Assembly (NCBI RefSeq): GCF_011065895.1
Contig: NZ_JAALCR010000037.1
Coordinates: 1 to 51,982 of the forward strand
DNA: 51,982 nucleotides
Origin: Paludisphaera rhizosphaerae
GTDB lineage: Bacteria; Planctomycetota; Planctomycetia; Isosphaerales; Isosphaeraceae
Direction: 5' to 3'
This document shows positions 8,389 through 27,222 of the stretch, piece by piece. A program made the position numbers and the translations under genes. The notes beneath the pieces are model-generated. The model made no database searches. It saw nothing but the letters and a program-made list of their open reading frames with translations, and was not told where the DNA came from. Positions within the stretch are counted from its first letter, which is position 1. Every line of letters begins with the position of its first letter.

Positions 8389-11300
8389 TCACCGAGCCGT
8401 CGGCGAGGTTTCCAGGGCGTGGCGGAACTCAGGACGGTCGCGAAGGGACGCCATGTCGGGGTCTGAGGCGGCGTGATCCGGCGGGAAACCGGAGGCCACG
8501 GCGCGCCCCAGCAGCTCCAGCGCCCGAGCGTGTTCGCCGAGCAGGGCCAGTGCGCATGAGGCGTTGTACAGGCCGTTCGCGGTCGGATGCGCGACGAGGC
8601 GGTCGATGTCGTCGAGAGCGGCCCGCTTGCCGACGCGGGCGCGCTCGACGGCTCGCAGCTCGACGGCGTCGAAGAAGTTGGGCTCGGCCTCGATCGCCTC
8701 GTCGAGATGCCTGAGGGCGGCGGCGGAATCGCTGCAACGCAGGACGTTGGCGAGCCCGTAGTGGGCCAGGGGGTTGTTCGGCTGCTCGGCCAGGACGGCG
8801 TTGAAATCCTCCGCGGCCTTCTCCGGCGAGTTCCGAAGTCGGATCACGCCCCGCGCGGCGCGGATTTCCGGACTGGGTGAATGCGCGAGAAGCTCGTTGA
8901 ACAGGTCGTCGGCCTGACGGGACTTGCCCTGGCGGTTCAGCGCGTCGGCCAGGGCGGCCGCCACGCGAGGCTCGTTGCGACCCTTGAGAATGGCCTTCCG
9001 CAGATCGAGCTCGGCCTTGGCCGGCTCGTTCAACTCCAGCTCGACCAGGCCCCGATTGGCGCGGGCCTCAAGGAAGTTGGGGTCCAGGGTTAGAGCCCGG
9101 GAGTAGGCGTCCGCGGCCTCGCGAGGACGGCCGGCCAGAGACAGGGCGACGCCTCGGTTGAAGTGGCCCCAGGCGTAGTCAGGCCGGGTGACGACGCAGG
9201 CCGTGAAGTCGCCGACCGCCTCGGGGTACCGCTTCTGCTCATAGTGGCAGTGACCCAGCGCGAACCACGCCCAGAACGAGGTGACGTCCAGCGCCACCGC
9301 CTCGCGCAGAGCCTGCTCGGCGGCTGTCAGATCGTCCATCGAGAGGTGGAACATTCCCAGGGTCGTCCAGTCGCGGCAGGTCTTGGGGGGCCGGGCCGCG
9401 GCTTCGCGACGGTCGCGCTCGGCTCCCTCACCGTCGCCCAGAGCCGCCCGATAGCGTGACCTCTGGCGGAACAGGACGGACGGGGGAGCCGGAAGCCTGA
9501 CGGCCAGGCGGTCGAGCCGTGCGACGGCCGATTCCAGGACCTGGCGGCGACGAGACTCGGACTCATCCTTCGCCGCGATGACGCGAGCGTGGACGTCCTC
9601 CAGAATCAGGTCGACGATCGATTCGCGTACCGCGGTTCGCTCGGCGGCCTCCAATCGGAGGATCCAGTCGCCGCCCAGCACCCCCTGGGCCTCGTCGACT
9701 CCCGCCGCCTCCAGCGTCGCCGGAGCCAGGAGCAAGCCGCGATGAAGGCGTTCCTCGTCGTTCGAAGCGTTGAGGAGGAACTGGCACTCCTGGGAGTCGC
9801 GTTGGAATTTGCGGAGCATCAACCGGGCGTGGAGCGCCTCCGTCGCCTCGTAAACGTGGAGACCGAGAATCATCACTAGCCCGAGGACGATGGCCGCCGC
9901 GCCGGCCGTGGATGTTGACGAGCAGGCCGCCGGATGTCGCCGCGCCCATTTCGCCGCACGCTCGGCCAGGCTGGGTTCGGGGCCGTACTTCATCGGCAGA
10001 TCGTCGAGGAATCGGCGAAGATCTTCCGCGAGGTCACCGGCGCAGGCGTATCGGTCGTCCGGGTTGGGAGCGAGGCATTTCGCCGCAAGGGCGTCCAGAC
10101 TGTAGGGGACTTCCGGGACGCGGGCTCGAAGCGAAGGGGGGGCCTGCTGACGCTCGGCGATCATCCGACGGACCAGTCCGAGGGACCCGCCGACCCCCTC
10201 TTGAGTGGGAAACGGCGACTCACCGGCGATCATCTCGAACAGGATCAGGCCCAGCGAGTAGATGTCCGACCGCTCGTCCACGGCCTCGGGGGAGGTCGAT
10301 CCCTGCGGATCGAGCGCGTCGAGGTGTTCGGGCGACATGTAGGGCAAGGTGCCGCCGAGCATCGCCCGTGCGATCGAGGCGTCGGCCTCCTGGTCCTCGG
10401 TCGGCGCCTCGACCGAGAGGTTGAAGTCCAACAGCATCGGGGTTCCGTCGGCCGCCATCAGCACGTTTGAGGGCTTCAGGTCCCGGTGCAGCAATCCGCG
10501 GGAGTGGGCGTGCTCCAGGCCCTCCGCCAGCCGAGCGACGACCCACACCGCCGCCCGGATCGGATCGGCGCGGCGAAGAAACCTGCGTGCGGGAAGGAGA
10601 TCGTCGTCGGGGTGGTCGCCGGCGGCCTCGGATGCCGGCCGATCCAGCATCCATCGCAGGGGAGCGAATTTCCGCGAGGGGCGATCCGGTCCTCCGCGCA
10701 TGATCGAAGTCGGACGATTGCCGGTATGGGCCGGGTCCAGCCGCACCGAACCTGAATCGTGGAGCCGAAGGCGGCGCGACTCCCTGCGGCTTGAAACCGG
10801 GGAGTCGACGCCGACCGGAGGCTGTCGCTGCGTGAGACGGTCCAGAGCCGCGATCAAGCAGGGGCGTCCGGCTTCGCCCTCGCAGCGCGCCTGCGCTTCT
10901 TCGAGGACCTGGGCCAGGTTCGCACCTCCCAGGTAGGGCATGCAGAGCAGCCTCAAGCCCGTCTTTGGGTCGTCGTGGACCGAGTGGACCGGGACGATGT
11001 GGGCGTGCTGGAGCCGAGCCAGAATCTGGGGCTCGTCCCCCTCGGCCGCGGAAACCTTCAGGGCGACGCGGCGACCTGCGAGATTGGCTTCCTCCGCCAG
11101 GAAGACGCGGGCGAAAGCTCCCCGACCCAGCTCGGAGATCAGTCGAAAGCCGCCGACCTCGTCGCCGGGACGGGGAAGGGCCGGACCCTGGTCCGAGCTT
11201 CGGCCGAAAGGGAGCCCCGTTTCATCGTCTCCGCCGCTCTCGAAGACGCAGGTGTCCTTGTCGATGTTCCGTCCGTCGAGCGGGCTTTCCGAGGACTCGA

Positions 11301-11445
11301 AGTCCATCGCCTCGCTGGGTGCCGACCGCAAGGCGGACCTTCCCCGTCGCGAAACCGGCTTCGAGGCCCGCAGCGATTCGAGCGAATCAACGGAGCCGAT
11401 TTCAAAGTCGGCGAACGGCGAGTCGTCGGAGCGGTTTTGCGCCAT
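8389..11445 (-). CDS. Membrane-anchored Ser/Thr protein kinase with TPR arm
   Basis: The 1018-residue protein has a disordered, Ser-rich first 90 residues, a Hanks-type kinase domain (about 100-480), a membrane helix near 510-531 and a C-terminal half with many TPR units (about 690-1000, e.g. ALGHCHYEQKRYPEA). Kinase motifs seen: Gly-loop GRGAFARV (107-114), the lysine in VALKV (130), HRDLKPSN (320-327) and DFN (340-342) in place of DFG. About 130 residues of low-complexity, Arg-rich sequence separate the hinge from the HRD helix, much longer than usual. The kinase probably faces the cytoplasm and the TPR arm the other side. The ATG at 11445 was preferred to GTG 11472 because AGAGGGAGAG precedes it. 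Substrates are unknown. Confidence 0.88.
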   Translation of the reverse strand: MAQNRSDDSPFADFEIGSVDSLESLRASKPVSRRGRSALRSAPSEAMDFESSESPLDGRNIDKDTCVFESGGDDETGLPFGRSSDQGPALPRPGDEVGGFRLISELGRGAFARVFLAEEANLAGRRVALKVSAAEGDEPQILARLQHAHIVPVHSVHDDPKTGLRLLCMPYLGGANLAQVLEEAQARCEGEAGRPCLIAALDRLTQRQPPVGVDSPVSSRRESRRLRLHDSGSVRLDPAHTGNRPTSIMRGGPDRPSRKFAPLRWMLDRPASEAAGDHPDDDLLPARRFLRRADPIRAAVWVVARLAEGLEHAHSRGLLHRDLKPSNVLMAADGTPMLLDFNLSVEAPTEDQEADASIARAMLGGTLPYMSPEHLDALDPQGSTSPEAVDERSDIYSLGLILFEMIAGESPFPTQEGVGGSLGLVRRMIAERQQAPPSLRARVPEVPYSLDALAAKCLAPNPDDRYACAGDLAEDLRRFLDDLPMKYGPEPSLAERAAKWARRHPAACSSTSTAGAAAIVLGLVMILGLHVYEATEALHARLMLRKFQRDSQECQFLLNASNDEERLHRGLLLAPATLEAAGVDEAQGVLGGDWILRLEAAERTAVRESIVDLILEDVHARVIAAKDESESRRRQVLESAVARLDRLAVRLPAPPSVLFRQRSRYRAALGDGEGAERDRREAAARPPKTCRDWTTLGMFHLSMDDLTAAEQALREAVALDVTSFWAWFALGHCHYEQKRYPEAVGDFTACVVTRPDYAWGHFNRGVALSLAGRPREAADAYSRALTLDPNFLEARANRGLVELELNEPAKAELDLRKAILKGRNEPRVAAALADALNRQGKSRQADDLFNELLAHSPSPEIRAARGVIRLRNSPEKAAEDFNAVLAEQPNNPLAHYGLANVLRCSDSAAALRHLDEAIEAEPNFFDAVELRAVERARVGKRAALDDIDRLVAHPTANGLYNASCALALLGEHARALELLGRAVASGFPPDHAASDPDMASLRDRPEFRHALETSPTAR

Positions 11446-11646
11446 TATCGAGTCGCTCTCCCTCTGGATCACAATCGCCGGCCACCGGCGCGTCCATCCA
11501 AATCGGTAGGTCCCGGCGTGGAGGTTGGCCAGCCGTTGTGGCGTTCAGGCAACACGTTTCCGGGTTTCCGTCGTTTCGTCGCGACGTGTCCTAGGCTTGT
11601 AATGTGATACCCGGTTCAAATAGGCAGGATGATGAGGGGGGCGAAC

Positions 11647-12877: not shown

Positions 12878-15800
12878 TCAACGGAACCCGCCGGCGGCCG
12901 CGCCGGGAGGCTGTTCGGCGGGAACCGCGTAGCGATTCTGAAGCCGCTCGATCTGCTTCAGGTTGTTGCCCCGGTTGAGCGACTGGATGTTGGCGTCGAG
13001 GGCCTGGTTCGGGGAGAAGGGGACGTTGTTCACCCCCTTCTGAATTTCGTCTCGCTGCTCCCTGATCAAACCCGGCGTTGCGATCGGTTCGGGTTGTGGA
13101 CCCAGGTACGCCTTGCCGCGATGGAAGGCGTATTCGGAAATCCCCTTGCGGACGACGACGGTCGCCTGGCCGTGCAGCCCCTCGGCGGCGAAGACGCCGC
13201 GGAGATCGGTCTCTCCCGAGCGGAACTCGGGATCGGCCGAGCCCACGACCTTCACCTGGACTCGGCTGGCCGGAGCCTTGGTGCGGGCGTCCCGGACGAC
13301 GGCCCGGAGCCGGCCGGCCGGCGCTTCCTCCAGAACATCGACTTCGAGCGGGCTGACCAGGACCACCCCCGAGGCGTAGAGGTCGCCGCCGCGGATCATC
13401 ACCAGGTACGCCCCGTTCTTGGTCAGTGGCAAGTCGATCGTCTTCGTTTTGTCCTCGTAGTCGTCGCCCGAACCCAGGGAGATCGACTGCTCGAACAGCG
13501 GCGTGATGCCGGCAAGATCCACGCCAGCGATGGCGTCGAGGTTCCGGCGGGCCAGGTAGAGTTGCATCAGGTCGACGGGGTGCACCGTGACGTCGACCCT
13601 GGCGATGTTGCGATACGTCAGCTTGATCTGCGCTTTGCCGTCGGTTGCGGCGGCATCGGGCGCGATCCCGATGTTCCGCAGGCCGCCTCCGGCGACGGCC
13701 GGCTCGGCGGGCGGGCGGACGACGGTGATCTCATCGACCTTCAGGTCCTTGCGGGTGTAGTACGCGACGGCGTCCGCGGCGTCGGTGAACTGCTCGGCCG
13801 CCTGGCGGTAGTATTCGAGGGCCCTGGTCGGCATGAGGCGGGCGTCGAAGATCTGGCCGAGGATAAAGACCGCCGGCCATTTATTCGGGCTGGAGACGTC
13901 GGCACCGGAAGCGTCCTTGTATGTCGCCTTGGCGATTGCCTCCGCCAGTTTCACGGCCTCGTCGTAGCGGCCGAGATGGAAGTCGGCCAGAGCCTGGCTG
14001 TACTGGAAGGCGTCCAGGAACCGGCTTTGGGGGTACATCGCCGCGTAACGGGCCGACGATTTCACGACGGCCGGATAGTCTTCCAACTCCAGCAACGTTC
14101 CAACCAGCGCCAGGCTGGCCTCGTCGGCGATCGGATTGGTCGGTGACTGGGCCAGGAAGGTCTGGATCATCCGGGCCGCGTGCAGCAGCAGGCCCGACCG
14201 CGTTACGCCCGCCGAGGCGAGCTTCCGTCGCAGAGTCGGATCGTCGATCGACCGCGTCGCGGCGTCGGCGACGACCTGAGAGAGCCCGAAGAAGTCGGTC
14301 TCGATCGACGGCGTGTTTGGATACTGCCGCCAGAGGTCGACGAGATAGGCCGTCGCCTCCAGGGGCTCCCCGCGCTGGCGGAGAAGTTCGCCGACGCGGG
14401 CGTCCTCGACGTAGCCGGCCTCGATCAGCCCGCGCCAGACGATCATCGCCCGTTCGTGCTCGTCGATGTCGCGATAGGCCCGGCCGATCACCTGGAGTTG
14501 ATCGAACGTCAGAATCATTTCAGGCGAGCGTTCCTTCACGACCTCAAAGTCGCGGACGATCTTGCGAGCGTCGTAATGGGCGATGTCGATCAGCAGGAGC
14601 ATCCGCGAGACGTCCTTGGCGACGTCGTCGCGCAAGGTCCAGTCGGTGTAGAGCGACTCCAGCGGCGCGGCGGCCTCGGCGAGGCGGCCGGCGTCGAAGA
14701 GGGTTTTGCCGCGGGCGTAAAGTTCGTCTGGCGTGGGTCGGATCTTGTCGTCGTCGGGCTCGCCGGGGGAGAGGACGCCGAACGAGCCGGGCTCGCCGAC
14801 GTGGAACCGCCCGGGCTCGTCGATGCTCCGCACCGACGCCGGCAGCGTCTTGTACTTGCCGGGGAGCCAGCCGAAGACGTCGTACTGGATGCCGCCAGGG
14901 TTGACGTCGGGCGGGAAGTAGAACGTCAGAACGCCGTCTGCCAGCGTGTAGGACGCGGCCGAGGATTTGACCGTCCCCTCGATCAGCGTCGTCCCGGCGG
15001 GGAGTCGCTCCTCGACAACGAGGAAATCGCGGTCCCAGACGGGCGTCTCGGAAGGGATGTTCCGCCAGACGACCAGCCCGACTCGGGCCCGGCCGCCGTA
15101 GGCTGCGTGAGTGGCGACGTTCTCGAACGTCGACGGGTTCACCGCAGCCGAGAAGCCCACGGGGAGCGTTTTGCCGTCTAGCTCAGGTTCGGCCGGCCAG
15201 TAGACGCGGCGATCGACCCAGGCGATGCGGCCGTTACGGTCCTGGTCGGGGCCGAACTCACGGGTGAAACCCGTCAGCCCGACCGAGTAGTGGAACGTCC
15301 CCCGGCCTTCCAGGGTGAAGGCCACGCGATTGGCGTCGTTGGCCTTGATCGCCTCGACGGGGACGGCGATCTCCTGAGCTTCGGCCGCGCCGGCGACGTC
15401 GATCTCGGAGACCTTGCGGTCGTTGACGACGACGGTGAGCTTGTACCGCTCGCCGCCGCCGGTCGTCTTACCGTGGAACGCCGCCAGCGCGGCGACGGCC
15501 GGCCCCTTCGCCTTGACGGGGTTCCACCCCAGGCCGAACCGGTGTGCCTCAAGCCACTCGACCCCCTGAGCCAACTCGTTCGCCTGGGGACGAGTACGAG
15601 CGTAAGCCAGGCAGGCGAGCGCCGTGGTCTCGGCCGTCGACCGCAGGCCAGCGGCTTGATTGGCGCCTTCCCAGTAGAGCCGCGGCCGTCGGCCCGGCGC
15701 AGGCGTCTCAGTCTTCGCCCTCGGCGCGAGGATCGCCAGCGATTCGGCCGCCAGCTCCGGACGCCCGAGGTTGGCGAACGTCAGCGCCAGATGTGCGAGC

Positions 15801-18800
15801 GCGGCGTTCGAGAGATTCTGACGCTCGCGATTGAGGCTGTTGGCCGCCTCGAAGCCGGCTCGCTTGCGGACGCTCAGGGCGTGCAGCAGCGCCGCGCGGG
15901 CGTCGCGGTCTCGGCTGTCGACGCGGCTGATCGCGGCCTCGATCCAGGCCGCGCCCTTGTCGAGGACCGATGAGTCAGGGAGCAGGCCGAGTTCGCCGGC
16001 CGTCGCCAGCGCCCAGAAGACGGAGGCCGTCGTGTAGCGGTCGCTCCCCGAGACCTGGGCGTTGTTCTCGGGTCGATCGGGTGCCGCCGCCATCCATCCC
16101 CAACCGCCGTCATCGCGCTGGGAGGCCGTCAACTGAGAGACGAGCCCCTGAATCCGTCCGACGAGTCGTCGGGCGTCGCCCGAGTCGCCGGCGCGGGCCT
16201 TGCGCAGATAGTCCAGGGCCGAGGTCGCCGCGAGCAGATCCGCGGCGCGATCGGCGGTCGTCGGGGGAGGGAAGCATCCCCAGATGATCTTGCGACTCTC
16301 GAACGGCCGAAGGTCCGAGCCCAGGGCCAACTCCACGATCATCCGCTCAAGGCTAGGCGAGACGACGATTCGCATGGCCGGGTTTTCATAAGACCGCCCT
16401 CCGGGGAGGCCGACGAAAACCGTGGCGCCGTCGCTGCTGGACCCCGAAGCCGAGGCGAAGGTCTGTACGCCCCAGGGACGCACCGGCAGTTCGGCCGCAA
16501 CCCGGTCCGAGCGGTCGCCGATCGTCGCGGTGAGCGTCAACTTCATCTCCCCCTCGCCGGCTTCGATCGGGTCGAAGAGGACCTCCTCGACGCCGTCGCC
16601 TTTCAGCTCGACCGTCTTGGGGAGGACCTGCTCACGGCCGCCGCTCCCAGCGGTCAGCTTGAGGGCTGCTGCGCCGGCGGCGACACCCATGTGGTGGATC
16701 CGCGCCATGAACCGCGGCCTGTCCCCCTGGGTGAGCGCTGGGGGGGCCTTCAACTCGACGAAGAAATCGCGGCGGATTGTCACCGAGGAGAACGCTTCGC
16801 CGACCAGCGTATCCGCGCCGGTGGCGCCTCGGGCCGTGATCCGATACTCCGACATCGCTGAAGGCGCGGGGAACGTCACCTTCGCCTTGCCGTCCTCGCC
16901 CGTGACGACAGCAGGATTCCAGTAGGCCGTTTCGACGAACTGCTCTCGGGGTGCTTCGTTCACGCCCCATAGGGTGGAGCGGTCGGCGTCTTCTCCCAAT
17001 TGGGCCCGCTTGCGAAGCATCCGCCCCTCGCCGCGTTGGTCGTCGGCATCCTTCGCTTTCTCCTCCGCTTTGGGCTCGTAGGCGAAGTTGTCCGAGAACG
17101 CGGCCCCCGCAGCCGGCTTCCCGGCCGCCATGCCGCCCCGACGGCCGCCGAGGCCAGGTCCCATCATGCCGACGGGTGCCGGTGCGGCCGGCGCAGCGGC
17201 GACGAGCCCTTCCAGGGATCGACCGACATCGGTCCGTCCCGCCGCGTTGGCGGCGAGGGCCGTTCGCCGTTCGGCCTCGTCGACGACCGCCCGCGAGACG
17301 GCCGTGGTGGCCGGAGCGTACCGGAAGGTGTTCGTCGACGAAACGGCGAAGGCGCCAACTCGCGTCTGGTCGTAGAAGAACCGACCGATGGGGGGCAGCG
17401 GATCGGCGAACCGCCGCAGGAGGGCCTGATCGACGACGGCCAGCGACAGCTCCGCCTTGACGGGACGGCCGAGCTGATCGAGCGCCGTAACCTCGACCTC
17501 GACGGGGTCGCCGGGACCGACCTGGGGCTTCGTCGGCTTCACGGTCACGCGCAGGTCGCGTTCGACGGCCACGTCGAGCCGGGCGTGGTCGAGCTTGTCG
17601 CGCCACATCCGCGTCGCCGTCAGGGTGAAGTTCGGGAACTGGGGACCGTCCACGTCCCACGAGACGGCGTTGTCCCCCTCGGCGAGGGTCACGATCCGAT
17701 ACGAGAGGATGCGGTCGGCGTCCCATGTGAGGAGCGCTGTGCCGGCGCGGCCTCGGCTGTGCAGGTTCACCCGGGCGGGCTCGCCGACCTTGTACCGGGT
17801 TCGGTCGGCGATCAGCCGAAGCGTCGTCTCGTCGTCCTTGCCGGAGATGAAGAGCGGTCGGTCGGCGACGACCGAGTTCCCGAAGCGGTCCGTTCCTGAG
17901 ACCCGGACCAGGAAGTGGCCGCCCGCCGCGTCGTCGGATCGGAAACTCACAGCGCCGCGGCCTTCGGCGTCGGTCTTGAGCGCCTTTCGCTCGACTTCTC
18001 TCTCGACGGTCCTGCCGTGGTCGACGACCACCTTCACGAGCGCGGTCGACAGCTCCTGAGGCGTGGGCGTTCCCAGGGCGTCGGTCGTTCGGACGCGGGC
18101 GGAGAACGTCTCGCCGGTCAGGTAGACGGCTCGGTCGGTCTCCACCTGGGTCGAGAACGCTTTGACTGCGATCGAGAGCTGGGCAACCGTCCGGACGTCG
18201 TCCTGCGGCAGCACGGCGACCAGGACGATTTGCTGCTCCTCGGCCAGACTCTCCGTCGGGAACGAGACGTGGAACTTGCCGTTCGCGTCCGTCCGGCCCT
18301 GGACCTTCCGCCCGTCCGGCAAGGAGACCTCGACCGGCCGGTCGGCCGCCGGGGCGCCGTACTGGAAGCGGGCGATCACGTCGGCCTCAACCGTCTCGCC
18401 GCGGTAGTAGACCGTTCGGGGCAGGTCGAAGGCCAGGTCGAGCGGCTGAAGCACGTACGACTGAACCTGAAACGAACCAGAGAACTCGCTCTTCCCTGGC
18501 TGGAAGACGCGCACCTGATAGCCGCCGACGGGAGCCGCCGAGTCGATCGGGACCGATTCATGGAAGGTGCCGAATTCGGAGAGCGTCACGTCACGAGCCG
18601 CGATCCGACGGCCCGAGGCGTCGACGACCTCGAAGCGGTACGATGCCCCGGGAGTGTTCGCGTACTGGCCGGCGGCGACCTCGCGGACGACGCCTCGAAT
18701 CAGGGCCGTCTGCCCAGGGCGGTATGCGGGCCGATCCGTGTAGATGAACGCCCGCGGCGCCAGCCCTCGTGAGACCTCGGCCCGCACGCCCAGGCTCGAC

Positions 18801-20947
18801 CCGGCGACGTGCGGGCCGTCGACGAGCAGATAAGTCAGCCGGCGATTCGCCTCGCGAGCCGGCGACCAGTCGTGCAGCAACACCCCGTCCGCGCCGGTGG
18901 CGGCTTCCAGGACGACCTGGCCGGCGTCGCAGATCAAAACCCGCGCGTTCGGTCGGCCCTTCCCGGTCTTCGCATCCTGGGCGAAGACGAGCACCTGATC
19001 GCGGGACGTTTTCACGATGGCGTCGAGGTCGCTGGCGACCACCAGGGTCGTCGCCTGGAGCGTCTTCTGGTCGGTGACCTTCACCACGTAGACGCCCGGC
19101 GTTTCCAGCTTCTTCAACGCGTAGTCGACCGAGACCGGCTTGAACCGGGCATAGCCGGGGACGTCTTCGGTCCACTCGGCGTCGGGGGCGACGAGGCCGA
19201 TGTCGAGCGATTCCACGTTCTCGAAGCCGTGCTTCTTGCGGAAATACGCCTCGGCGTTCAGCTTGTAGGCCGTGAACGTCAGCCGTTCCAGGTTCCTTGT
19301 GGAGATCTGGAGATTCGCCGTCTCACCAGTGCGGAAGCTGCGCGGTGTGACGACGGTCAGCGTCGTCGATTCCATCACGGCGATTCGCTGCGCCGCCTGC
19401 ATGGCCCACGGCTGCGTCTTGATCTTCTTGTAGGCCTCGACGGCCTCGGCGAGCTTGCCCTTTCGTTCCTCCAGGATTGTGCCGGTGAGGAACTGAGCGT
19501 GCGCGGCGGGCTCGGTGTCCGGGAACTTACCGAGGAGAGTCGACCAGGCGGCGATCGCCTCGTCGTCGTGCTTCTCCTCGGCGTGGCTCCAACCGATCTG
19601 GAAGAGGACCTCCGGGACGCGGGCGTCGAGAGGGTTCTGGGCGACGAACTCGCTCCAGGCAGCGCGGGCGTCGCCGAAACGACCCAGACGGACGAGATCC
19701 TGGGCCTTGGATAGCTTTGCCGACAGAATAGCTCGCTGGGCGTCCGCGCTCTGGGGACCGTCGGGGTACTTGGCCAGATATCCCTGCCAGGCGGCGACCG
19801 CCTCGTCGAACCGAAGCTGCGATCGAAGGACGTCGCCCACCTGATACGCGGCCGTCATCGACAGCTCGGCCAGATCCTTGCGAGCCTCGTCCGTCTCGGC
19901 CTTGTAGCCTTCTCCAGTAAGGAATCGATGGAAGGCGTCGAGGGCTTCCTCGTGTCGGTTCCGGGCCAGATAGGACGCGGCGATCTCGTACGCCGCGCGG
20001 ACCGCTCGGGGGTGGGTCGGATAGGCGGCCAGGAACCGCTTCAAGGCGGCGACTCCCAGCGTCAGGCTCTGGGAGTCGGGCGGGTTCGGTACGCCGTAGG
20101 TTGCGGGGATCAGGGCGAGGGCCTGGGCTCGCGCGTCGTCATCGGCCGGGGTTCGGGCTTCCGGCTTCATGCGCTCCACGTCGCGGGCCAGGTCGGTCCA
20201 GGCGAGACGGGCGTCCAGCGGGCGGCCGGAGTCTCGGAGAGCCTCGCCCAGCATCAGCCGGGCGGCCGAGCGTCCGGGGAGGTTGGGGAAGTCCTTGAGT
20301 CGAGCTTCCAACTCGGTCACGGCGCGAGGATGGTCGCCGAGGATTCGGCTGACTCGGGCGATCTCGACAGTCAGGTCGCCCCGCGCAGCGGCTCCCTTGG
20401 CCAGCAATCGAGCCTGGATCAGCAGCTCACGAGCGCCCTGGGGATCTGGGGGAGTTACGGGGTCGTCGGGCTTGAGGAGACCCCGGGCGAACGACTTATA
20501 GACGTCGGCCAGCCGATCCTTGCGTTCGTCGGCCAGGAGCGGGATCGCGGAGGCTCGCGCCAGCTCCTCGGCGCGGACGGCGTCGCCCGCAGCCAGCTCC
20601 AGGGTGGCCAGCTCGTAGCGAATCTTGGGGATCCAGACGCTCTTCGGGTGGGCCTCCATCGCCTTGCGGAGCCCTTCCCGCGCCGGATCTCGGCGGCCGT
20701 CCAGGCGGTCGGAAATCGCGATGAGGAATTCCAGGTAAGCCTGCTCATCGTCGCCGTTCGCCTTGCCTCGAAGCGCCGACAGCTCGGCGCGAGCCTCGGC
20801 GAATCGGCGTTCCTGCAAGGCCGCGACCACCTCGCCGGGGATCGTCGGCGCGGCGGCCGGTGGGGCGCCTTTCACGTCGTCGGGGGCGATCACCCCAGTC
20901 AGAGAGGCGGCGACAAGCGACCCAATCCATGTGCAGAAGAGAGGCAT
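12878..20947 (-). CDS. Giant alpha-2-macroglobulin-like protein with TPR blocks at both ends
   Basis: The 2689-residue exported protein begins with a short hydrophobic signal (about 5-20). Approximate order: TPR-type helical repeats (30-520); macroglobulin strands including YTDRPAYRPGQ near 737, the canonical MG2 phrase; further MG/bait domains; a Gly/Ala/Pro-rich bait-like stretch before the A2M core; the A2M core starting near 1324 (TLWGVNEAPREQF); an alpha-toroid (about 1550-1850); a C-terminal MG segment; a second TPR block (about 2065-2400); and a further MG-like module from about 2443. The thioester region reads WGCFPPPTTADR at Cys1558, so the C-x-E-Q thioester is absent. Bacterial A2M proteins are periplasmic protease traps or lipoproteins; no lipobox is evident. 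The ATG at 20947 has GGAGG nine bases upstream; an upstream start at 21091 would add 48 residues lacking a signal peptide. Confidence 0.87.
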   Translation of the reverse strand: MPLFCTWIGSLVAASLTGVIAPDDVKGAPPAAAPTIPGEVVAALQERRFAEARAELSALRGKANGDDEQAYLEFLIAISDRLDGRRDPAREGLRKAMEAHPKSVWIPKIRYELATLELAAGDAVRAEELARASAIPLLADERKDRLADVYKSFARGLLKPDDPVTPPDPQGARELLIQARLLAKGAAARGDLTVEIARVSRILGDHPRAVTELEARLKDFPNLPGRSAARLMLGEALRDSGRPLDARLAWTDLARDVERMKPEARTPADDDARAQALALIPATYGVPNPPDSQSLTLGVAALKRFLAAYPTHPRAVRAAYEIAASYLARNRHEEALDAFHRFLTGEGYKAETDEARKDLAELSMTAAYQVGDVLRSQLRFDEAVAAWQGYLAKYPDGPQSADAQRAILSAKLSKAQDLVRLGRFGDARAAWSEFVAQNPLDARVPEVLFQIGWSHAEEKHDDEAIAAWSTLLGKFPDTEPAAHAQFLTGTILEERKGKLAEAVEAYKKIKTQPWAMQAAQRIAVMESTTLTVVTPRSFRTGETANLQISTRNLERLTFTAYKLNAEAYFRKKHGFENVESLDIGLVAPDAEWTEDVPGYARFKPVSVDYALKKLETPGVYVVKVTDQKTLQATTLVVASDLDAIVKTSRDQVLVFAQDAKTGKGRPNARVLICDAGQVVLEAATGADGVLLHDWSPAREANRRLTYLLVDGPHVAGSSLGVRAEVSRGLAPRAFIYTDRPAYRPGQTALIRGVVREVAAGQYANTPGASYRFEVVDASGRRIAARDVTLSEFGTFHESVPIDSAAPVGGYQVRVFQPGKSEFSGSFQVQSYVLQPLDLAFDLPRTVYYRGETVEADVIARFQYGAPAADRPVEVSLPDGRKVQGRTDANGKFHVSFPTESLAEEQQIVLVAVLPQDDVRTVAQLSIAVKAFSTQVETDRAVYLTGETFSARVRTTDALGTPTPQELSTALVKVVVDHGRTVEREVERKALKTDAEGRGAVSFRSDDAAGGHFLVRVSGTDRFGNSVVADRPLFISGKDDETTLRLIADRTRYKVGEPARVNLHSRGRAGTALLTWDADRILSYRIVTLAEGDNAVSWDVDGPQFPNFTLTATRMWRDKLDHARLDVAVERDLRVTVKPTKPQVGPGDPVEVEVTALDQLGRPVKAELSLAVVDQALLRRFADPLPPIGRFFYDQTRVGAFAVSSTNTFRYAPATTAVSRAVVDEAERRTALAANAAGRTDVGRSLEGLVAAAPAAPAPVGMMGPGLGGRRGGMAAGKPAAGAAFSDNFAYEPKAEEKAKDADDQRGEGRMLRKRAQLGEDADRSTLWGVNEAPREQFVETAYWNPAVVTGEDGKAKVTFPAPSAMSEYRITARGATGADTLVGEAFSSVTIRRDFFVELKAPPALTQGDRPRFMARIHHMGVAAGAAALKLTAGSGGREQVLPKTVELKGDGVEEVLFDPIEAGEGEMKLTLTATIGDRSDRVAAELPVRPWGVQTFASASGSSSDGATVFVGLPGGRSYENPAMRIVVSPSLERMIVELALGSDLRPFESRKIIWGCFPPPTTADRAADLLAATSALDYLRKARAGDSGDARRLVGRIQGLVSQLTASQRDDGGWGWMAAAPDRPENNAQVSGSDRYTTASVFWALATAGELGLLPDSSVLDKGAAWIEAAISRVDSRDRDARAALLHALSVRKRAGFEAANSLNRERQNLSNAALAHLALTFANLGRPELAAESLAILAPRAKTETPAPGRRPRLYWEGANQAAGLRSTAETTALACLAYARTRPQANELAQGVEWLEAHRFGLGWNPVKAKGPAVAALAAFHGKTTGGGERYKLTVVVNDRKVSEIDVAGAAEAQEIAVPVEAIKANDANRVAFTLEGRGTFHYSVGLTGFTREFGPDQDRNGRIAWVDRRVYWPAEPELDGKTLPVGFSAAVNPSTFENVATHAAYGGRARVGLVVWRNIPSETPVWDRDFLVVEERLPAGTTLIEGTVKSSAASYTLADGVLTFYFPPDVNPGGIQYDVFGWLPGKYKTLPASVRSIDEPGRFHVGEPGSFGVLSPGEPDDDKIRPTPDELYARGKTLFDAGRLAEAAAPLESLYTDWTLRDDVAKDVSRMLLLIDIAHYDARKIVRDFEVVKERSPEMILTFDQLQVIGRAYRDIDEHERAMIVWRGLIEAGYVEDARVGELLRQRGEPLEATAYLVDLWRQYPNTPSIETDFFGLSQVVADAATRSIDDPTLRRKLASAGVTRSGLLLHAARMIQTFLAQSPTNPIADEASLALVGTLLELEDYPAVVKSSARYAAMYPQSRFLDAFQYSQALADFHLGRYDEAVKLAEAIAKATYKDASGADVSSPNKWPAVFILGQIFDARLMPTRALEYYRQAAEQFTDAADAVAYYTRKDLKVDEITVVRPPAEPAVAGGGLRNIGIAPDAAATDGKAQIKLTYRNIARVDVTVHPVDLMQLYLARRNLDAIAGVDLAGITPLFEQSISLGSGDDYEDKTKTIDLPLTKNGAYLVMIRGGDLYASGVVLVSPLEVDVLEEAPAGRLRAVVRDARTKAPASRVQVKVVGSADPEFRSGETDLRGVFAAEGLHGQATVVVRKGISEYAFHRGKAYLGPQPEPIATPGLIREQRDEIQKGVNNVPFSPNQALDANIQSLNRGNNLKQIERLQNRYAVPAEQPPGAAAGGFR

Positions 20948-21376: not shown

Positions 21377-23179
21377 GTGGCGATAAGCGTGCATGGATTC
21401 TGGCGCAGGTTGGGTGCGGCAGGACGCCGATCGCACGATCGTCGCGGCGCTGTCTCTCGCGGCGGAAGCCGTGGCGGATCTCCTCGCATCGGCGTCATTG
21501 AGACGCTGGAGCCGCGAGTGCTCCTGAACGCCGACTCCGAAACCACCCAGGATCGACTGCCTCCGCCGGAGTCGCTCTATTTCGTGGTTCCCCCTCCGGC
21601 GTCCGAAATCGCCCTGGGATGGGGAGACTCCTCGGCCGACCAGGGGACGTCGGGTCCTCCTGCGCCGAAGAATGAGGTCGCTCCGACCGACGCTCAGCCG
21701 ACCTTTCTGGCTTCGAGGCCGTTCGATTCGATCAACGGACCCATCTCACCCATCCTGAAAGCTCAGGCCGACGCTATCCGCAGCCACATCCTTTCGGCGG
21801 CGGGCATCGACCTTCAGGACGCCGAGGGGAACTCAAAGTCCTCGGAAGATGAGGCGCTGGACGCTTCGCGCACGGATAACTTCGCACCGTCGACGACCGC
21901 CGCCACGCTTGGCTCCCCGATCGTGGAAACGCTGACCGGTCCGCCGAGCCCCGCAGAACTGGAAACGCTTCCGAAGGTTCCGTGGACGCGCAGCTACTCC
22001 TACGCTGGCGCGATCGAAGCCGACAGGGACTCGGTGGCCTTCCGCATCCCCGTCGGGCCGACGACTCAGACGCTGACCGTCGACGTTCGACCTGGCGCCG
22101 ACGGCCAGCTCACCACTCCCAAGATCGATCAGCTGTACCTGATCGGAGCCAACGGCGAGATGCTGGCGGCGATCTCCGGCGTCAAGTTCATGTCGAACGG
22201 CTCGGAGCAGGTCCTGTACATCTCGATCCACGGGGCTCCCGTCGGCGGCCAGTTGTTCATGCGTCTGGTTCGAGGCGACGACGCAGGGACCTACTACGGC
22301 GGCAGCGACGACTCCGACTCGCTCACCAACGTCCAACTCCCCTCGTCGTGGGGATCGTCCAACTACGAGATCAGCATCCTGAGGACGGACGTGGTCTCGA
22401 ACTCCGGGGTCGCGACGGGCGCCTCCTCCTCGGGAGGAGCCTCGTTCATCACGACGCTCCCGACGACGACCGACGCCTCGACGTCGTCCGCGGCCACGTC
22501 CTCTTCCAGCCCGGGGACGGCCTCCTCCAACACGAAGGAGGCGGCGGACTCGCGGGTCGACGAGGTCGCCCAGTCCGAAGAGGATGGAGTTGAACTGGCT
22601 AAGCTGGAGGAAGATCCTCCTTCCGTCTACCTGGGACCGCTGGTCTCTCGGACGGCCGCGCCGCTGGGGCCCGTTCTGGCGACCTACGCCGGCGATCCCG
22701 CTCCTCCGGTCTCACGTGCGGATCGCCCAGCCGGCGACGTTCTGGACGCGCTCGGGGGGGATCTCGATCTCGACCTGCTTCTGAATCTCCGAAGCCGCCG
22801 GGCGACGAGCCATGCGGCAAGACGAGAGGACGACGGGGCGACGATCGCCGAATCGAGGGGGGGAACCGGCGCGCCGATCCTCCTGGCCGGCAACCAACCG
22901 ATCGACCCCCGGACGGAGGCGCTGGCTCTGGCCGCCTCTCTCGACCGGGACGCCGAGTCGGAAGAGCTTCTGGTCGACGCGGCCGACGATCCTCCCCGCG
23001 AGCGTCAGGCCGAGGTCGCCCGCGCCGGTCTCGCGACGCGGGCCGTGGGCTTCCTGATCGGCCTGGGGCTGGCGTCTGGGCCGCTCTATCCCGACCTTGT
23101 CGCCCTGGCTCGTCGAAAGCTGCTTCGCAGAACCCGACCGCTCCGGCGCAGGGCGGCGAAAGGCGGCGGAGGATCGTAA
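21377..23179 (+). CDS. LEPR-XLL domain exported protein of unknown function
   Basis: This 600-residue protein starts with GTG. A strongly basic leader (residues 1-37) is followed by IETLEPRVLLNAD (41-53), an exact LEPR-XLL motif. The central part is Pro/Ser/Thr/Asp-rich and low in complexity, with one beta-sandwich-like domain at about 200-330 (TLTVDVRPGADGQ ... YYGGSDDSDS), reminiscent of bacterial pre-peptidase-type domains. The C-terminus carries a hydrophobic segment near 556-576 (GFLIGLGLASGPLYP) followed by an Arg/Lys-rich tail, the layout of a C-terminal membrane or sorting anchor. No catalytic motif is recognised. It is probably a surface-attached structural protein (inference). Confidence 0.75.
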   Translation: MAISVHGFWRRLGAAGRRSHDRRGAVSRGGSRGGSPRIGVIETLEPRVLLNADSETTQDRLPPPESLYFVVPPPASEIALGWGDSSADQGTSGPPAPKNEVAPTDAQPTFLASRPFDSINGPISPILKAQADAIRSHILSAAGIDLQDAEGNSKSSEDEALDASRTDNFAPSTTAATLGSPIVETLTGPPSPAELETLPKVPWTRSYSYAGAIEADRDSVAFRIPVGPTTQTLTVDVRPGADGQLTTPKIDQLYLIGANGEMLAAISGVKFMSNGSEQVLYISIHGAPVGGQLFMRLVRGDDAGTYYGGSDDSDSLTNVQLPSSWGSSNYEISILRTDVVSNSGVATGASSSGGASFITTLPTTTDASTSSAATSSSSPGTASSNTKEAADSRVDEVAQSEEDGVELAKLEEDPPSVYLGPLVSRTAAPLGPVLATYAGDPAPPVSRADRPAGDVLDALGGDLDLDLLLNLRSRRATSHAARREDDGATIAESRGGTGAPILLAGNQPIDPRTEALALAASLDRDAESEELLVDAADDPPRERQAEVARAGLATRAVGFLIGLGLASGPLYPDLVALARRKLLRRTRPLRRRAAKGGGGS

Positions 23180-23313: not shown

Positions 23314-26300
23314 TCAGCCGCTGGAGGTCGTCGACGGCGGCGTCGAACGAACCCGGGCCAGGGCGTGAGAGGTCGTCCGGCGGGCGAGTTCCAGCCAACG
23401 CGGGAGGCGATCGGGCCGGGCGGTCAGGCAACGGGCGTAGGCGATCAACACGCCCAGGTCGGTCGCTGGATCTTCGTCCGACCAGGCCGCCGCCTGTTCG
23501 AGGTCGGCCAGTGCCGGCTCGATCAGGGGGGGCGAGAGTTCAATGAAGCAAAGGGCCCGGCCGAGGTAAGCGTCAGCCCGTTCGCGGTCGCGGCGGAGAA
23601 CCAGGGTCCATTCGCGGGCCGCGTCCTGCGTCCGGCCGAGACGGCGTAGCGCCCGGGCTCGATGAATCCGAGCGTAGACGTCGTCGGACCGCGAGACCGC
23701 CAGGTCCAGGTCGTCGAGAGCGGACTCGGGTGCAGGCCCGCCAAGTTTCAGGACGCCGCGAAGTTCCAGCAGGCCGGGATTGTCGGGCGCCAGTTTGAGC
23801 CCGAGCCGGACCTGGCGCTGGGCCTCGCGATCGTCCCCCGCCCAGCTGGAGACCCGCGCGGCGATCAGGTGGGCTTCGGCTGAATTCTGGCTCGAATCCG
23901 CCAGGGCCTCGGCGACGGCGGCCCGAGCCTGACGGTGTCGCCCGAGAGTCGCCAGGATCACGGATCGGGTGAGTCGCAGCCGGTGCGCGACATCGGGACG
24001 AGCGGCGGCGAGTGCGGCGATCCGGCGCTCGGCCGTGACCAGGTCGGCGCGGAGCCGGGGGCCGCCGACCGGGAAAAGCGCGAGGTCCTCGGGGCGGTCG
24101 ATCTGGAGGTCGTCGTAGCGGCCGGCGGCGAGCAGGGCCCTGTCGACCAGACGGTCACGCGCGGGCGTCGGGTCGAGTCGACGGGCCTCGACCGCGTCGA
24201 CCACCGCTTCTTCCCGACGGCTGAGCATCATCCGGACGATCGCGCGCATCGCCAGCAGGTCGCTCCGCTCGTCCTCGCGAGTCTCGCCGTCAACGAGCAA
24301 CTCCAGCGCCGCCTCGGCCGAATCGGGATGGCCCAGACGAAGGTCGAGGAGCGCTCGGCTCCGTCTCGCCGCGACGTCGCCTGGGTTCTGCGTCAACAAC
24401 TCGCCGAAAATCTCCTGCGCTCGCGCCACGTCGCCCGATTCGGCGTAGATGTTGGCAAGGTTGAGCTGCGCCGCTCGGGCCAACTCGCCGTCCGGATCGG
24501 TCTCGATCACCTCCCCGTACCATCGTCGCGCGCCAACGACGTCGCCCAACCTCTGGCGAACGTAGCCCAACTCCAACCGGACTCGCGCGGCTTCAGGACG
24601 CTCGCCCATCTTCGCCAGCGAGGCTTCCAGCTCCTTCAGGGCTTCGGCCCACGATTCCTGCTTGCGACAGAGACGCGCCCGGCTGAACAAGACCCACGGC
24701 GAGTCGGGGTTCACGCCTTTCGCGACGTCGTAGTGCCTGAGAGCCTCGTCGTCCAGGCCCGCCTGGTCCTCCAGATAGCCTAGATAGTATTGATACCAGT
24801 AGTTGGACCAGTTGATCAGGACGGACCGCCGCAGCCAGAGGATGGCGGGCGCCAGTTCGTGGCGGCTGGAATGCAACAACCCGCGCTGGAAGCAGGCCAG
24901 GGCCGATCGCTCGTCCTCCGGGCGAGGCTCGATCGGGGGCCGTCCGATTTCGGGCCGATTGGGGAGCCGCTCCTCGAAGCGTCGTCGCAGCTCGCGCCAG
25001 GGGCCCGGCGAGTCGACGAACCGGAGAGCCTTATCGCAGTGTTCGATCGCTCGTGCGACGGTCTTCTCCCGGACCGGGTTGCGCTCAGGCGTGGGGTCGG
25101 GGAGGGAGGCCTCGACGCCGACCATCCAGAGGAAGAGCAACTCGTTGACCTCGGACTTGAGGCGATCGAGCTCGGCCGGGTCGAGCATGCTCAGGTTGTG
25201 GTCGAGCTTCGTCCAGTCCTTGGCGCCCAGGACGTAGAAAGGTTCCAGCAGCGCCTGGAGCTTCTCAGCAGCGACGGCGCGGCCTTCGGCGACGCCGACG
25301 AACCGCATCCGCAGATCCTCGGCGGCGGCGTGCACGGCCTCGGCCTGCCGGCGTTTCTCGGCTGACCGCTCAGCCAGGTGATACTTGTGGTTGGCGTCGT
25401 CCGCGCGGCGCTCCAGGTCGTTGTAGGCGTGGGGCTCGGTAAGCCGGACCCGGAGTCGCTCGGCGAGATCACGGACGTTCCGCAGGTCGAAGACGCGGGT
25501 CAGAAAGTTCTGGCTGGGGCCTTCCACGAACTGAAGCGCCGCGTCGTACTGGAGCTTGGCCGTCTCGAAATCACGTTTCTGCATCAGTTCGTCGCCCGCC
25601 TCCAGGCGACGGTCCGCCTGGGCCGCGCGATCGGTCCGCTCGATGCTCAGATTGATCGCCGCCGCGCCGGCCGCGCCGCAGGAGATGAGAACGACGGCCG
25701 CGGTCGCGAACCGGAAGCGGTTGCGGCGAATCCGCCGGGCGGCCCGGCTCCACAGGGGCTCGCGCGCGTGAATCAGCGGGAAGTCGTCGGCGACGGCCTG
25801 AAGGTCGGCGGCCAGTTCCTCGGCCGTCTGGTAGCGGTCGTCCGGCGCTGGAGCCAGGCAGCGTTCGAGGACCGCGCGGATCGGCGCAGGGACGTCGACT
25901 TCGTCCGGAAACAGGCCGTGGGGGTCGCGTCGCCGCTCGTCGGCCGAATCGAGAAGCGCCTCGACGACCGACGACGTTTTGCGGGGCGGGGCGAACGGCT
26001 TCACCCCCAGCAGGGCCTCGAACAGCAGGACGCCCATCGAGAAGACGTCCGACCGAGCGTCGACGTGATCGCCGACGGCCTCGGCCAGCGCTTCCAGGTG
26101 CTCCGGGGCCATGTAGTCGACCGTGCCGCCGAGACTCGCCGCCGCTCCGGGCCCGCCGTCGGGGGTGATCGCCTCGTGGGCCAGGTTGAAGTCCAGGAGC
26201 ATCGGCGTGCCGTCGGAGGCGATCAGAACGTTCGACGGCTTGACGTCTCGGTGCAGGACGCCGCGCTCGTGCGCGTGGCCGAGGGCCTCCGCGAGACGGG

Positions 26301-27222
26301 CCCCCCACCAGGCGAGGGCTCTGGGGAAGGTCCGCGCAGCTAGCTCGGTCCGACCCGCCGAGGGGCCTGTGGAGGCGGCGTCCGGCTCCAGGCGGTCGAG
26401 CGCTTCGACCAGAGCGCGACCGCTGGGGGGCCCTTCGCCGCCGGCCCTGTCGACCTCGTCCAGCAGCCTCGACAGCGTCACGCGACCGAAGTAAGGCATG
26501 CAAAGGACGTGCAGCCCGGTCGCCGGTTCCACGCGATGCGAGTGAACCGGGACGATGTGCGTGTGCTGGAGCCGAGCCAGCGTCTGGGGCTCGCGGGAGC
26601 CTCGAAGACTGACCTTCAGGGCGACAGGGCGATCCGCGAGCTGGGTCTCGCGTGCCAGGAAGACCCGCCCGAACGAGCCTCGGCCCAACTCCTCGACAAG
26701 CTGAAAACCGGCGATGGCGTCGCCGGCTTCGGGAAATTTCGGCCGTCCCCCGAGGTCGTCGTCGGTCGTCGTCGTCGTGCCGTGCGATCCCGTCGACCCC
26801 GAGCCTGCACCGACGAGCCGGTGGATGTCCAGCACGCGCCGCAGCGGGCCGGAGAAGTTCTCATATCGGGACAGGAAGGCGTCTGGCTCGGGGGCCTCGC
26901 CGGCCTCTTCCAGCAGGCAGAACTCCTCGTAGATCAGGGCGACGATGGTGTCTTCGCCCAGCTCGGGATAGCGTTCCGCGTACCAGTCGGCGGACGCTCG
27001 TTGTCCTGATTCCCACCGGAGCGACATGTCGGTGCGCAGGATGGCCAGCCGCGCGCCGGGGAACCCGCCGGGCTCGGGCCAGCCGGCGAGGAACGCACGG
27101 GGGTCGGGGCGCGAGCCGTTGGAGTCGGCCTCGCGCCAGGCCTGCTCGTATCGTCGTGTAAGGCGCGCCGCGGAGGGTGTTGAGGCGTCCTCCCACGTCC
27201 GCCCCCAGGCGCCAACGCTCAT
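23314..27222 (-). CDS. Ser/Thr protein kinase with TPR arm, coupled to an ECF sigma factor
   Basis: The 1302-residue protein has an N-terminal helical module (about 15-135) containing the phrase ADWYAERYPELG, followed by a low-complexity linker. The kinase domain spans about 172-480: Gly-loop GRGSFGRV (180-187), lysine 203, HRDVKPSN (324-331) and DFN (344-346) instead of DFG. A membrane helix lies near 505-525, and a long TPR-rich arm fills the rest. Its ATG overlaps the sigma-factor stop codon (ATGA at 27219-27222), so translation is probably coupled. Kinases of this build next to ECF factors are a planctomycete theme; the kinase may control the sigma factor by phosphorylation (inference). 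Confidence 0.9.
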   Translation of the reverse strand: MSVGAWGRTWEDASTPSAARLTRRYEQAWREADSNGSRPDPRAFLAGWPEPGGFPGARLAILRTDMSLRWESGQRASADWYAERYPELGEDTIVALIYEEFCLLEEAGEAPEPDAFLSRYENFSGPLRRVLDIHRLVGAGSGSTGSHGTTTTTDDDLGGRPKFPEAGDAIAGFQLVEELGRGSFGRVFLARETQLADRPVALKVSLRGSREPQTLARLQHTHIVPVHSHRVEPATGLHVLCMPYFGRVTLSRLLDEVDRAGGEGPPSGRALVEALDRLEPDAASTGPSAGRTELAARTFPRALAWWGARLAEALGHAHERGVLHRDVKPSNVLIASDGTPMLLDFNLAHEAITPDGGPGAAASLGGTVDYMAPEHLEALAEAVGDHVDARSDVFSMGVLLFEALLGVKPFAPPRKTSSVVEALLDSADERRRDPHGLFPDEVDVPAPIRAVLERCLAPAPDDRYQTAEELAADLQAVADDFPLIHAREPLWSRAARRIRRNRFRFATAAVVLISCGAAGAAAINLSIERTDRAAQADRRLEAGDELMQKRDFETAKLQYDAALQFVEGPSQNFLTRVFDLRNVRDLAERLRVRLTEPHAYNDLERRADDANHKYHLAERSAEKRRQAEAVHAAAEDLRMRFVGVAEGRAVAAEKLQALLEPFYVLGAKDWTKLDHNLSMLDPAELDRLKSEVNELLFLWMVGVEASLPDPTPERNPVREKTVARAIEHCDKALRFVDSPGPWRELRRRFEERLPNRPEIGRPPIEPRPEDERSALACFQRGLLHSSRHELAPAILWLRRSVLINWSNYWYQYYLGYLEDQAGLDDEALRHYDVAKGVNPDSPWVLFSRARLCRKQESWAEALKELEASLAKMGERPEAARVRLELGYVRQRLGDVVGARRWYGEVIETDPDGELARAAQLNLANIYAESGDVARAQEIFGELLTQNPGDVAARRSRALLDLRLGHPDSAEAALELLVDGETREDERSDLLAMRAIVRMMLSRREEAVVDAVEARRLDPTPARDRLVDRALLAAGRYDDLQIDRPEDLALFPVGGPRLRADLVTAERRIAALAAARPDVAHRLRLTRSVILATLGRHRQARAAVAEALADSSQNSAEAHLIAARVSSWAGDDREAQRQVRLGLKLAPDNPGLLELRGVLKLGGPAPESALDDLDLAVSRSDDVYARIHRARALRRLGRTQDAAREWTLVLRRDRERADAYLGRALCFIELSPPLIEPALADLEQAAAWSDEDPATDLGVLIAYARCLTARPDRLPRWLELARRTTSHALARVRSTPPSTTSSG

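What the first reader, a model, noticed from the sequence alone, without database searches (positions are those of the whole stretch)
12878..20947. Macroglobulin core framed by TPR blocks at both ends
A2M-type proteins in bacteria are usually about 1500-1700 residues. Here a 2689-residue version has TPR-like repeats before MG1 and a second TPR block followed by another MG-like module at the C-terminus. This could be a protease trap combined with a protein-docking scaffold.
Basis: partly seen in the sequence, partly recalled or inferred. Interest (0 to 1): 0.6.

Follow-up and report, generated by a model that had tools for sequence, protein, structure and literature searches.

The report
Giant two-armed macroglobulin without thioester
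This planctomycete gene encodes a very large, probably exported relative of the animal immune protein alpha-2-macroglobulin that lacks the usual chemical trap and carries the same docking-and-sandwich arm at both ends, a recurring design for which we found no published description and which probably works as a scaffold or non-covalent cage.

Summary
It is a real family: 40 further full-length loci from 39 assemblies labelled Planctomycetota, Verrucomicrobia, Spirochaetales, Poribacteria or plain 'bacterium'. (1) The C-terminal arm is a second copy of the N-terminal one: the MG pairs match at hhalign E 3e-14, against 0.0022 to 0.62 for 16 other windows, with the same element order. (2) No CxEQ thioester motif in 41 of 41, although 20 of 21 shorter A2Ms from genomes of the same class have it. 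(3) The twin MG pairs are the best conserved segments; TED is less so and reduced in some members. A classical covalent protease trap is therefore unlikely. I favour a non-covalent, type-II-like macroglobulin scaffold or cage assembling through its two equivalent arms. Kinship with the recently described CAGE complex is suggested by block order but untested.

The parts
12878..20947 (-). whole coding sequence, 2689 aa, ATG start
   Evidence: GGAGG about 10 bases upstream of ATG
20864..20947 (-). residues 1-28, hydrophobic signal-peptide-like N-terminus
   Evidence: sequence; 39 of 40 relatives have a hydrophobic N-terminus by a crude rule whose start codon was chosen for hydrophobicity; no dedicated predictor run
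19373..20839 (-). residues 37-525, N-terminal TPR solenoid (25 helices in the model)
   Evidence: Pfam TPR_6/TPR_16/YfiO; model pLDDT 89
18773..19372 (-). residues 526-725, N-terminal MG pair (bMG3-like second domain)
   Evidence: aligned to Salmonella A2M with the rest of the ring
17303..18760 (-). residues 730-1215, MG ring (MG2 onward) with bait-region domain
   Evidence: Pfam MG2, A2M_BRD; model on C3 beta chain and Salmonella A2M
16958..17275 (-). residues 1225-1330, hypervariable bait-like stretch (65-352 aa across 41 members)
   Evidence: lowest conservation of the segments scored, 1.19 bits; profile
16658..16945 (-). residues 1335-1430, A2M (PF00207) domain
   Evidence: also found by whole-genome search
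16283..16657 (-). residues 1431-1555, MG8/CUB first part
   Evidence: model on TEP1, A2ML1, C5
16244..16282 (-). residues 1556-1568, site of the thioester motif in other A2Ms; a Cys is present but no CxEQ
   Evidence: control
15458..16270 (-). residues 1560-1830, TED-like alpha/alpha toroid without CxEQ
   Evidence: profile match to YfhM TED at 2e-6, equalled by squalene-cyclase-type toroids at 1.4e-6
14768..15457 (-). residues 1831-2060, CUB second part and C-terminal MG of the core
   Evidence: bMG10 in 22 of 40 members at E<=0.1
13733..14752 (-). residues 2066-2405, C-terminal TPR solenoid (17 helices)
13088..13642 (-). residues 2436-2620, C-terminal MG pair, duplicate of 526-725
12881..13087 (-). 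residues 2621-2689, variable tail

Best explanation
It is a probably exported giant member of the alpha-2-macroglobulin superfamily built as [TPR-MG-MG]-[MG ring with bait-region domain]-variable stretch-[A2M-CUB-TED without CxEQ]-[TPR-MG-MG]. The two end arms are copies of one another, and the covalent trap is missing. SHOWN by sequence and models: the architecture, the arm duplication, the missing motif, the single clade among the A2Ms sampled, the occurrence in several phyla. INFERRED: it sits in the periplasm or outside; the thioester was lost rather than never there; the two near-equivalent arms act as matching docking or assembly surfaces, so that copies or partners close around a target and hold it non-covalently; cutting of the variable stretch may drive the closing, as reported for the thioester-less MagD. 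My confidence is about 0.95 for the architecture and 0.35 for the mechanism; the number below is for both together.
For: Whole order in 40 further full-length loci. Arm duplication: hhalign E 3e-14 for the MG pairs, 16 other windows 0.0022-0.62; TPR+MG block as a whole E 1e-25; a profile made from C-terminal pairs only hits two places in one long frame in many genomes (capped list); 14 of 14 compared secondary-structure elements in the same order, offsets 493-502. Both arms with cross-hits in 10 of 12 further loci; in the other two (L134, L136) my stretch or frame held only one end, and each shows that arm. Thioester: CxEQ in 0 of 41 against 20 of 21 shorter A2Ms. Core fold: residues 1426-2060 on TEP1r Z 31.5, 3.5 A over 547 residues; 526-1208 on Salmonella A2M Z 22 (rmsd 14.9 A, so domain arrangement differs). 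Conservation: MG pairs 2.76 and 2.89 bits, TED 2.27, MG8/CUB 2.14, bait-like 1.19. Giants are one side of a branch, support 100 and 100/100.
Against: No oligomer was predicted or measured; N and C halves were modelled apart, so whether the arms meet is unknown. 25 of 41 members keep a Cys near the former thioester site, and one (L091) has CSTQ there, so a degenerate or altered bond is not fully excluded. No conserved partner gene was found. Another thioester-less A2M, MagD, works with operon partners; two mag-type families, DUF1175 and DUF2138, are absent here. High conservation of the arms fits a pure scaffold equally well. That the variable stretch is cut by proteases is untested.
Confidence: 0.5

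Rival explanations
1. Pure envelope scaffold: the macroglobulin core is only a rigid spacer, the two TPR-MG-MG arms dock other envelope proteins and nothing is trapped.
For: MG pairs and TPR_C are the best conserved parts. In one sub-group (L125-L129, frames of 2,302-2,448 aa, L127 cut at its N-terminus) the MG8/CUB profiles no longer match and TED matches only in part, while both arms stay strong. TPRs resemble periplasmic YbgF/CpoB/BamD solenoids.
Against: The variable stretch and the BRD-A2M-TED order are kept in the 41 aligned members, more than a spacer needs. No partner gene is conserved next to it.
Confidence: 0.33
2. Classical covalent protease trap like YfhM or human A2M with added docking repeats.
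For: MG ring, BRD, A2M and TED fold are present. A Cys near the site in 25 of 41 members, and CSTQ in one of them, L091.
Against: No CxEQ in 41 of 41; 20 of 21 shorter A2Ms keep it.
Confidence: 0.03
3. Envelope-assembly factor related to the CpoB/BamD way of working, with TPRs binding outer-membrane or cell-wall machinery.
For: tol_pal_ybgF and OM_YfiO profiles match the N-terminal TPR (80.8 and 69.8 bits, both below the curated cut-offs of 90.1 and 81.4); CpoB is the best TPR hit among solved chains for P0001.
Against: Matches are generic TPR matches below cut-off; the flanking genes annotated are not of that kind.
Confidence: 0.1
4. Chance fusion or assembly artefact joining unrelated genes.
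For: None beyond the unusual length.
Against: Same order in 40 other loci from 39 assemblies, among them the complete Singulisphaera acidiphila record (L056); third-position GC 0.81-0.90 along the gene.
Confidence: 0.01

Closest known systems
Type II bacterial A2M (MagD of Pseudomonas, YfaS of E. coli)
   Same: No CxEQ motif, bait-like stretch kept, macroglobulin core; giant-core profiles match the longest open piece of the K-12 yfaS pseudogene strongly (MG ring 3e-49, A2M 8e-24, part of MG_N 8e-13).
   Different: No TPR and no C-terminal arm match in that 1385-aa piece, which is not a whole protein; mag-type partner families DUF1175 and DUF2138 are absent from this genome; tree position of the yfaS piece is weak (support 55, long branch).
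Type I bacterial A2M (YfhM/ECAM, Salmonella A2M)
   Same: Same MG ring, BRD, CUB-TED and C-terminal MG fold.
   Different: CxEQ and a PBP1C neighbour missing here; TPRs at both ends and a duplicated MG pair added.
The ~2,080-aa thioester A2M of the same genome (L104:1995-8243)
   Same: Same core order and a similarly long stretch before MG2.
   Different: Keeps YPYGCTEQ; ends after the core. No C-terminal TPR arm match in any of 21 shorter A2Ms; MG_C hits in six of them are weak (E 4e-6 to 2e-3) and lie before MG2.
CAGE complex (Tetrahymena CAGE1, Dictyostelium AbpF; preprint PMC12485934, text parts 1-2 of 7, Discussion, one methods section and passages read)
   Same: Order of blocks alpha, beta sandwiches, alpha inserted in beta, beta, alpha, beta; two sandwiches whose top fold hits were A2M; bacterial homologues with signal peptides, most prevalent in PVC lineages.
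   Different: Authors report no Pfam domain, and no PDB match for alpha domains 1 and 13, whereas here TPR and A2M models match; length 1,890-2,418 against 2,689; no sequence comparison could be made.

Membership tests
Alpha-2-macroglobulin superfamily | MG2, bait-region domain and A2M domain in order | tested here: met
   PF01835, PF07703, PF00207 above cut-off
Alpha-2-macroglobulin superfamily | CUB-TED-C-terminal MG fold after the A2M domain | tested here: met
   Z 31.5, 3.5 A over 547 residues on TEP1r; A2ML1 and C5 similar
Type I bacterial A2M | CxEQ thioester in TED | tested here: not met
   0 of 41 members; control 20 of 21 shorter A2Ms
Type I bacterial A2M | operon with PBP1C | tested here: not met
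   nearest genes in the window are HD-GYP, a 600-aa protein without Pfam match and kinase-TPR proteins; only these neighbours were annotated
Type II bacterial A2M (MagD/YfaS) | no CxEQ motif | tested here: met
Type II bacterial A2M (MagD/YfaS) | bait region kept and cleaved | tested here: inconclusive
   hypervariable stretch 1225-1330 present; cleavage not testable here
Type II bacterial A2M (MagD/YfaS) | mag operon partners | tested here: not met
   DUF1175 and DUF2138 (products of yfaT and yfaA beside yfaS): 0 matches in the own genome, E. coli control rings in both searches; the other partner families were not searched
Type II bacterial A2M (MagD/YfaS) | common descent of the core | tested here: inconclusive
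   tree places the yfaS piece near giants and 2,000-aa forms with support 55/36 only, long branch
TPR repeat proteins | TPR helix pairs at both ends | tested here: met
   N block; C block TPR_18 above cut-off, 38 of 40 members TPR_2 at E<=0.1; solenoids in both models; profile match between the blocks
CAGE complex | sequence homology to AbpF/CAGE1 | not testable with these tools
   no CAGE sequence held; profile searches of PDB chains listed none by name (one search showed 60 of 139), but whether the entries are in the copy is unknown
CAGE complex | hollow homotetramer | not testable with these tools
   no oligomer prediction available

The most novel reading that the evidence does not exclude
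This family is, or is the ancestor of, the prokaryotic CAGE proteins: a macroglobulin that lost its thioester and duplicated its N-terminal arm became a self-closing megadalton cage, also found in protists and slime moulds. Supporting but not proving: colinear block order and roughly similar block sizes (the 2,383-2,448-aa reduced members come closest to CAGE1's 2,216), an alpha domain inserted in a split beta domain like TED in CUB, A2M-like CAGE sandwiches, exported bacterial forms most prevalent in PVC lineages (PMC12485934). Against: the authors found no Pfam domain in CAGE1 and no PDB match for two of its alpha domains.
Probability: 0.3. Interest if true: 0.85.

Novelty: new variant of a known kind. 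Interest (0 to 1): 0.52.

Why it matters
Macroglobulins are the ancient core of animal complement and protease control. A bacterial lineage, present in several phyla, that lacks the thioester and has doubled its arm shows a second route for the fold, from single-use covalent trap towards assembly or scaffold, and gives a clear, testable structural prediction. If linked to CAGE it would supply an evolutionary origin and a functional hint for a cage of unknown function.

Tried and rejected
Conserved operon: frames near 41 loci (40 relatives and the window) were clustered by blastp; the largest cluster covers 13 of 41 loci (kinase-TPR proteins), one with the HD-GYP protein 9, one with the LEPRVLL-type protein 6. 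Others are smaller or antisense frames, not annotated by any search. No conserved partner seen; stretches reach at most about 10-12 kb and many contigs end earlier.

Viral origin or spread: no relative of the C-terminal MG pair in viral contigs (61 pattern matches, none confirmed). The BFVD fold search gave one macroglobulin of a giant-virus sample at E 1.1e-7, TM 0.16, and TPR proteins. Not followed.

CAGE in PDB: no chain named CAGE or AbpF in hmmsearch lists or in the 50 rows shown of each fold search. Absence proves nothing.

RNA features: none in the window at gathering thresholds.

Void rows: the last five repeat an old output file; the comparison was redone. Rows dropped: 29 of 69 genome loci were left out of the 41-row set because matches did not reach both below residue 140 and above 2590; at least L043 and L060 among them have full-length frames. 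The tree used 25 of 41 giants, that ten; searches used 28 of 41 rows for the MG-pair profiles; A3 and A4 used 39 and 40. L134 was missing because my stretch cut the gene to a 558-aa frame under the filter.

Full report
WHAT IS THERE. The frame window:12878-20947 (-) is open for 2689 codons from an ATG at 20947 with GGAGG about ten bases upstream. GC and third-position GC are even along the gene, so no recent patching is visible. The genome (G000, 8.05 Mb, 110 contigs) has one other A2M match, at C3:110984.

DOMAINS. Pfam finds TPR models in the N-terminal fifth, then bMG3, MG2, A2M_BRD and A2M, and TPR_18 at 2254-2326. Two AlphaFold models on family alignments (39 and 40 rows) are good: residues 29-1228 mean pLDDT 89.0, pTM 0.66; residues 1426-2625 mean pLDDT 86.1, pTM 0.61. 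The stretch 1229-1425 was not modelled. The first 635 residues of the second model lie on TEP1r at Z 31.5, 3.5 A over 547 residues, with A2ML1, A2M and C5 close behind. From memory, C5 also lacks a thioester. By sequence profile alone the toroid matches YfhM no better than squalene-cyclase-type toroids (2e-6 against 1.4e-6), so its naming as TED rests on the fold and its place in the chain.

THE TWO ARMS ARE COPIES. Aligned as profiles over 41 members, the whole TPR+MG blocks match at E 1e-25. TPRs match each other easily (redone alone: 1e-10 to 1e-15), so the MG pairs were tested alone: 2436-2625 against 526-715 gives E 3e-14 and 149 columns, while the other 16 windows (the last two shorter) give 0.0022, for the window overlapping the true partner, and 0.051 to 0.62 (repeated with separate alignments). 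These E-values are for a single comparison. In the models the pairs share 14 elements at near-constant spacing. A profile made only from C-terminal pairs finds many long frames in other genomes of the phylum twice, about 5-6 kb apart. Segment profiles on 12 further divergent loci give both arms, with the N profile hitting the C arm and the reverse, in 10; in the other two only one end was seen.

THE THIOESTER MOTIF IS MISSING. CxEQ occurs nowhere in 41 of 41 members. 25 of 41 keep a Cys within the aligned stretch around the site, and one, L091, has CSTQ there, which I read as chance but cannot exclude as a relic. As control, 20 of 21 shorter A2Ms fetched from genomes of the same class have CxEQ, mostly YPYGCTEQ, including the paralogue in this genome (L118 is the exception). 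In two trees the giants are one side of a branch with full support. One shorter A2M (L112) has N-terminal TPR and MG matches and a thioester motif but no C-terminal arm, as expected of an intermediate; the order of events was not tested.

WHAT IS CONSERVED. The MG pairs lead (2.76 and 2.89 bits), then TPR_C 2.62, A2M 2.55 and the MG ring 2.52; CUB/RBD 2.29, TED 2.27, TPR_N 2.26, MG8/CUB 2.14; the bait-like stretch 1.19 with lengths 65-352. So the N-terminal TPR is no better conserved than TED; the statement about the arms rests on the MG pairs and the C-terminal TPR. In a sub-group (L125-L129) the MG8/CUB profiles no longer match and TED matches in part, while both arms stay strong; these five are close to each other (57-62% to L125), so this is one lineage.

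SPREAD. In one genome-contig scan 194 stretches encode relatives; the best 80 gave 69 loci, labelled Isosphaeraceae, Pirellulales, Phycisphaeraceae and other Planctomycetota, and Verrucomicrobia, Spirochaetales and Poribacteria (labels as in the records, mostly MAGs). The C-terminal-pair profile matches 104 of 292 phylum genomes at E<=0.001, 65 of 209 among good ones; the weakest of these may not be giants. The whole protein matches 53 of 59 near relatives, some through shorter A2Ms or TPR proteins only. PF00207 itself is found in 109 of 118 genomes of the class.

HOW IT MAY WORK. Export is inferred from hydrophobic N-termini (39 of 40 by a crude rule that favours hydrophobic starts). Published type II MagD holds a test protease non-covalently after bait cleavage and forms complexes with operon partners (PMC5764988, abstract and passages), and protects against some peptidoglycan-targeting type VI effectors (PMC12663445, passages). 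The giant shares the missing motif and the bait-like stretch but not the two operon families tested. I infer that its second arm stands in for partner proteins or a neighbouring subunit, giving closure through pseudo-equivalent arms. A pure scaffold is nearly as likely.

RELATION TO KNOWN SYSTEMS. It is a member of the A2M superfamily by fold and profiles. It is not a type I A2M (motif missing). Membership in type II is open: core profiles match the longest yfaS piece better than YfhM (MG ring 3e-49 against 2e-15), but the tree support is 55 and two operon families are absent. The nearest published thing in overall layout is CAGE (PMC12485934); that comparison rests on the authors' domain list and my block order, with no sequence test.

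LITERATURE. No paper describing TPR-flanked or arm-duplicated macroglobulins was found in the held open-licence library (searches, of which 18, 44 and 79 returned nothing; listings read, plus passages of PMC3328433 and PMC4498604). Subscription papers and database annotations were not searched, so such proteins may well be listed under A2M or TPR names.

VERDICT. Real and conserved; a new variant of a known kind with a duplication I found no report of. Interest 0.52.

Noticed in passing
window 28025-36319 (-): 2764-aa surface-type protein with transglutaminase core, Big_3_5, LVIVD repeats and an N-terminal CERLEARLMLAAD motif.
   Followed up: no
window 21377-23179 (+): 600-aa protein with IETLEPRVLLNAD motif and no Pfam match at E<=0.1, divergent from the A2M gene; similar frames of 586-705 aa near the gene in six loci, this window included.
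   Followed up: partly
window 23314-27237 (-) and 8389-11472 (-): Two serine/threonine kinase-TPR proteins lie on either side of the A2M gene; similar proteins cluster near it in 13 of 41 loci.
   Followed up: partly
L112 (1938-aa frame): Thioester-motif A2M with N-terminal TPR and MG matches but no C-terminal arm: a possible intermediate.
   Followed up: partly
L125-L129: Family members with frames of 2,302-2,448 aa, reduced CUB/TED but both arms strong.
   Followed up: partly
L118 (2062-aa frame): The only one of 21 shorter A2Ms without a CxEQ motif.
   Followed up: no
L091, near the former thioester site: CSTQ in a member otherwise without CxEQ; several relatives keep a Trp-Cys at this place.
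   Followed up: partly
G106:C1:477316-477558: A2M domain in a 3859-aa open frame, longer than any other in the capped list.
   Followed up: no
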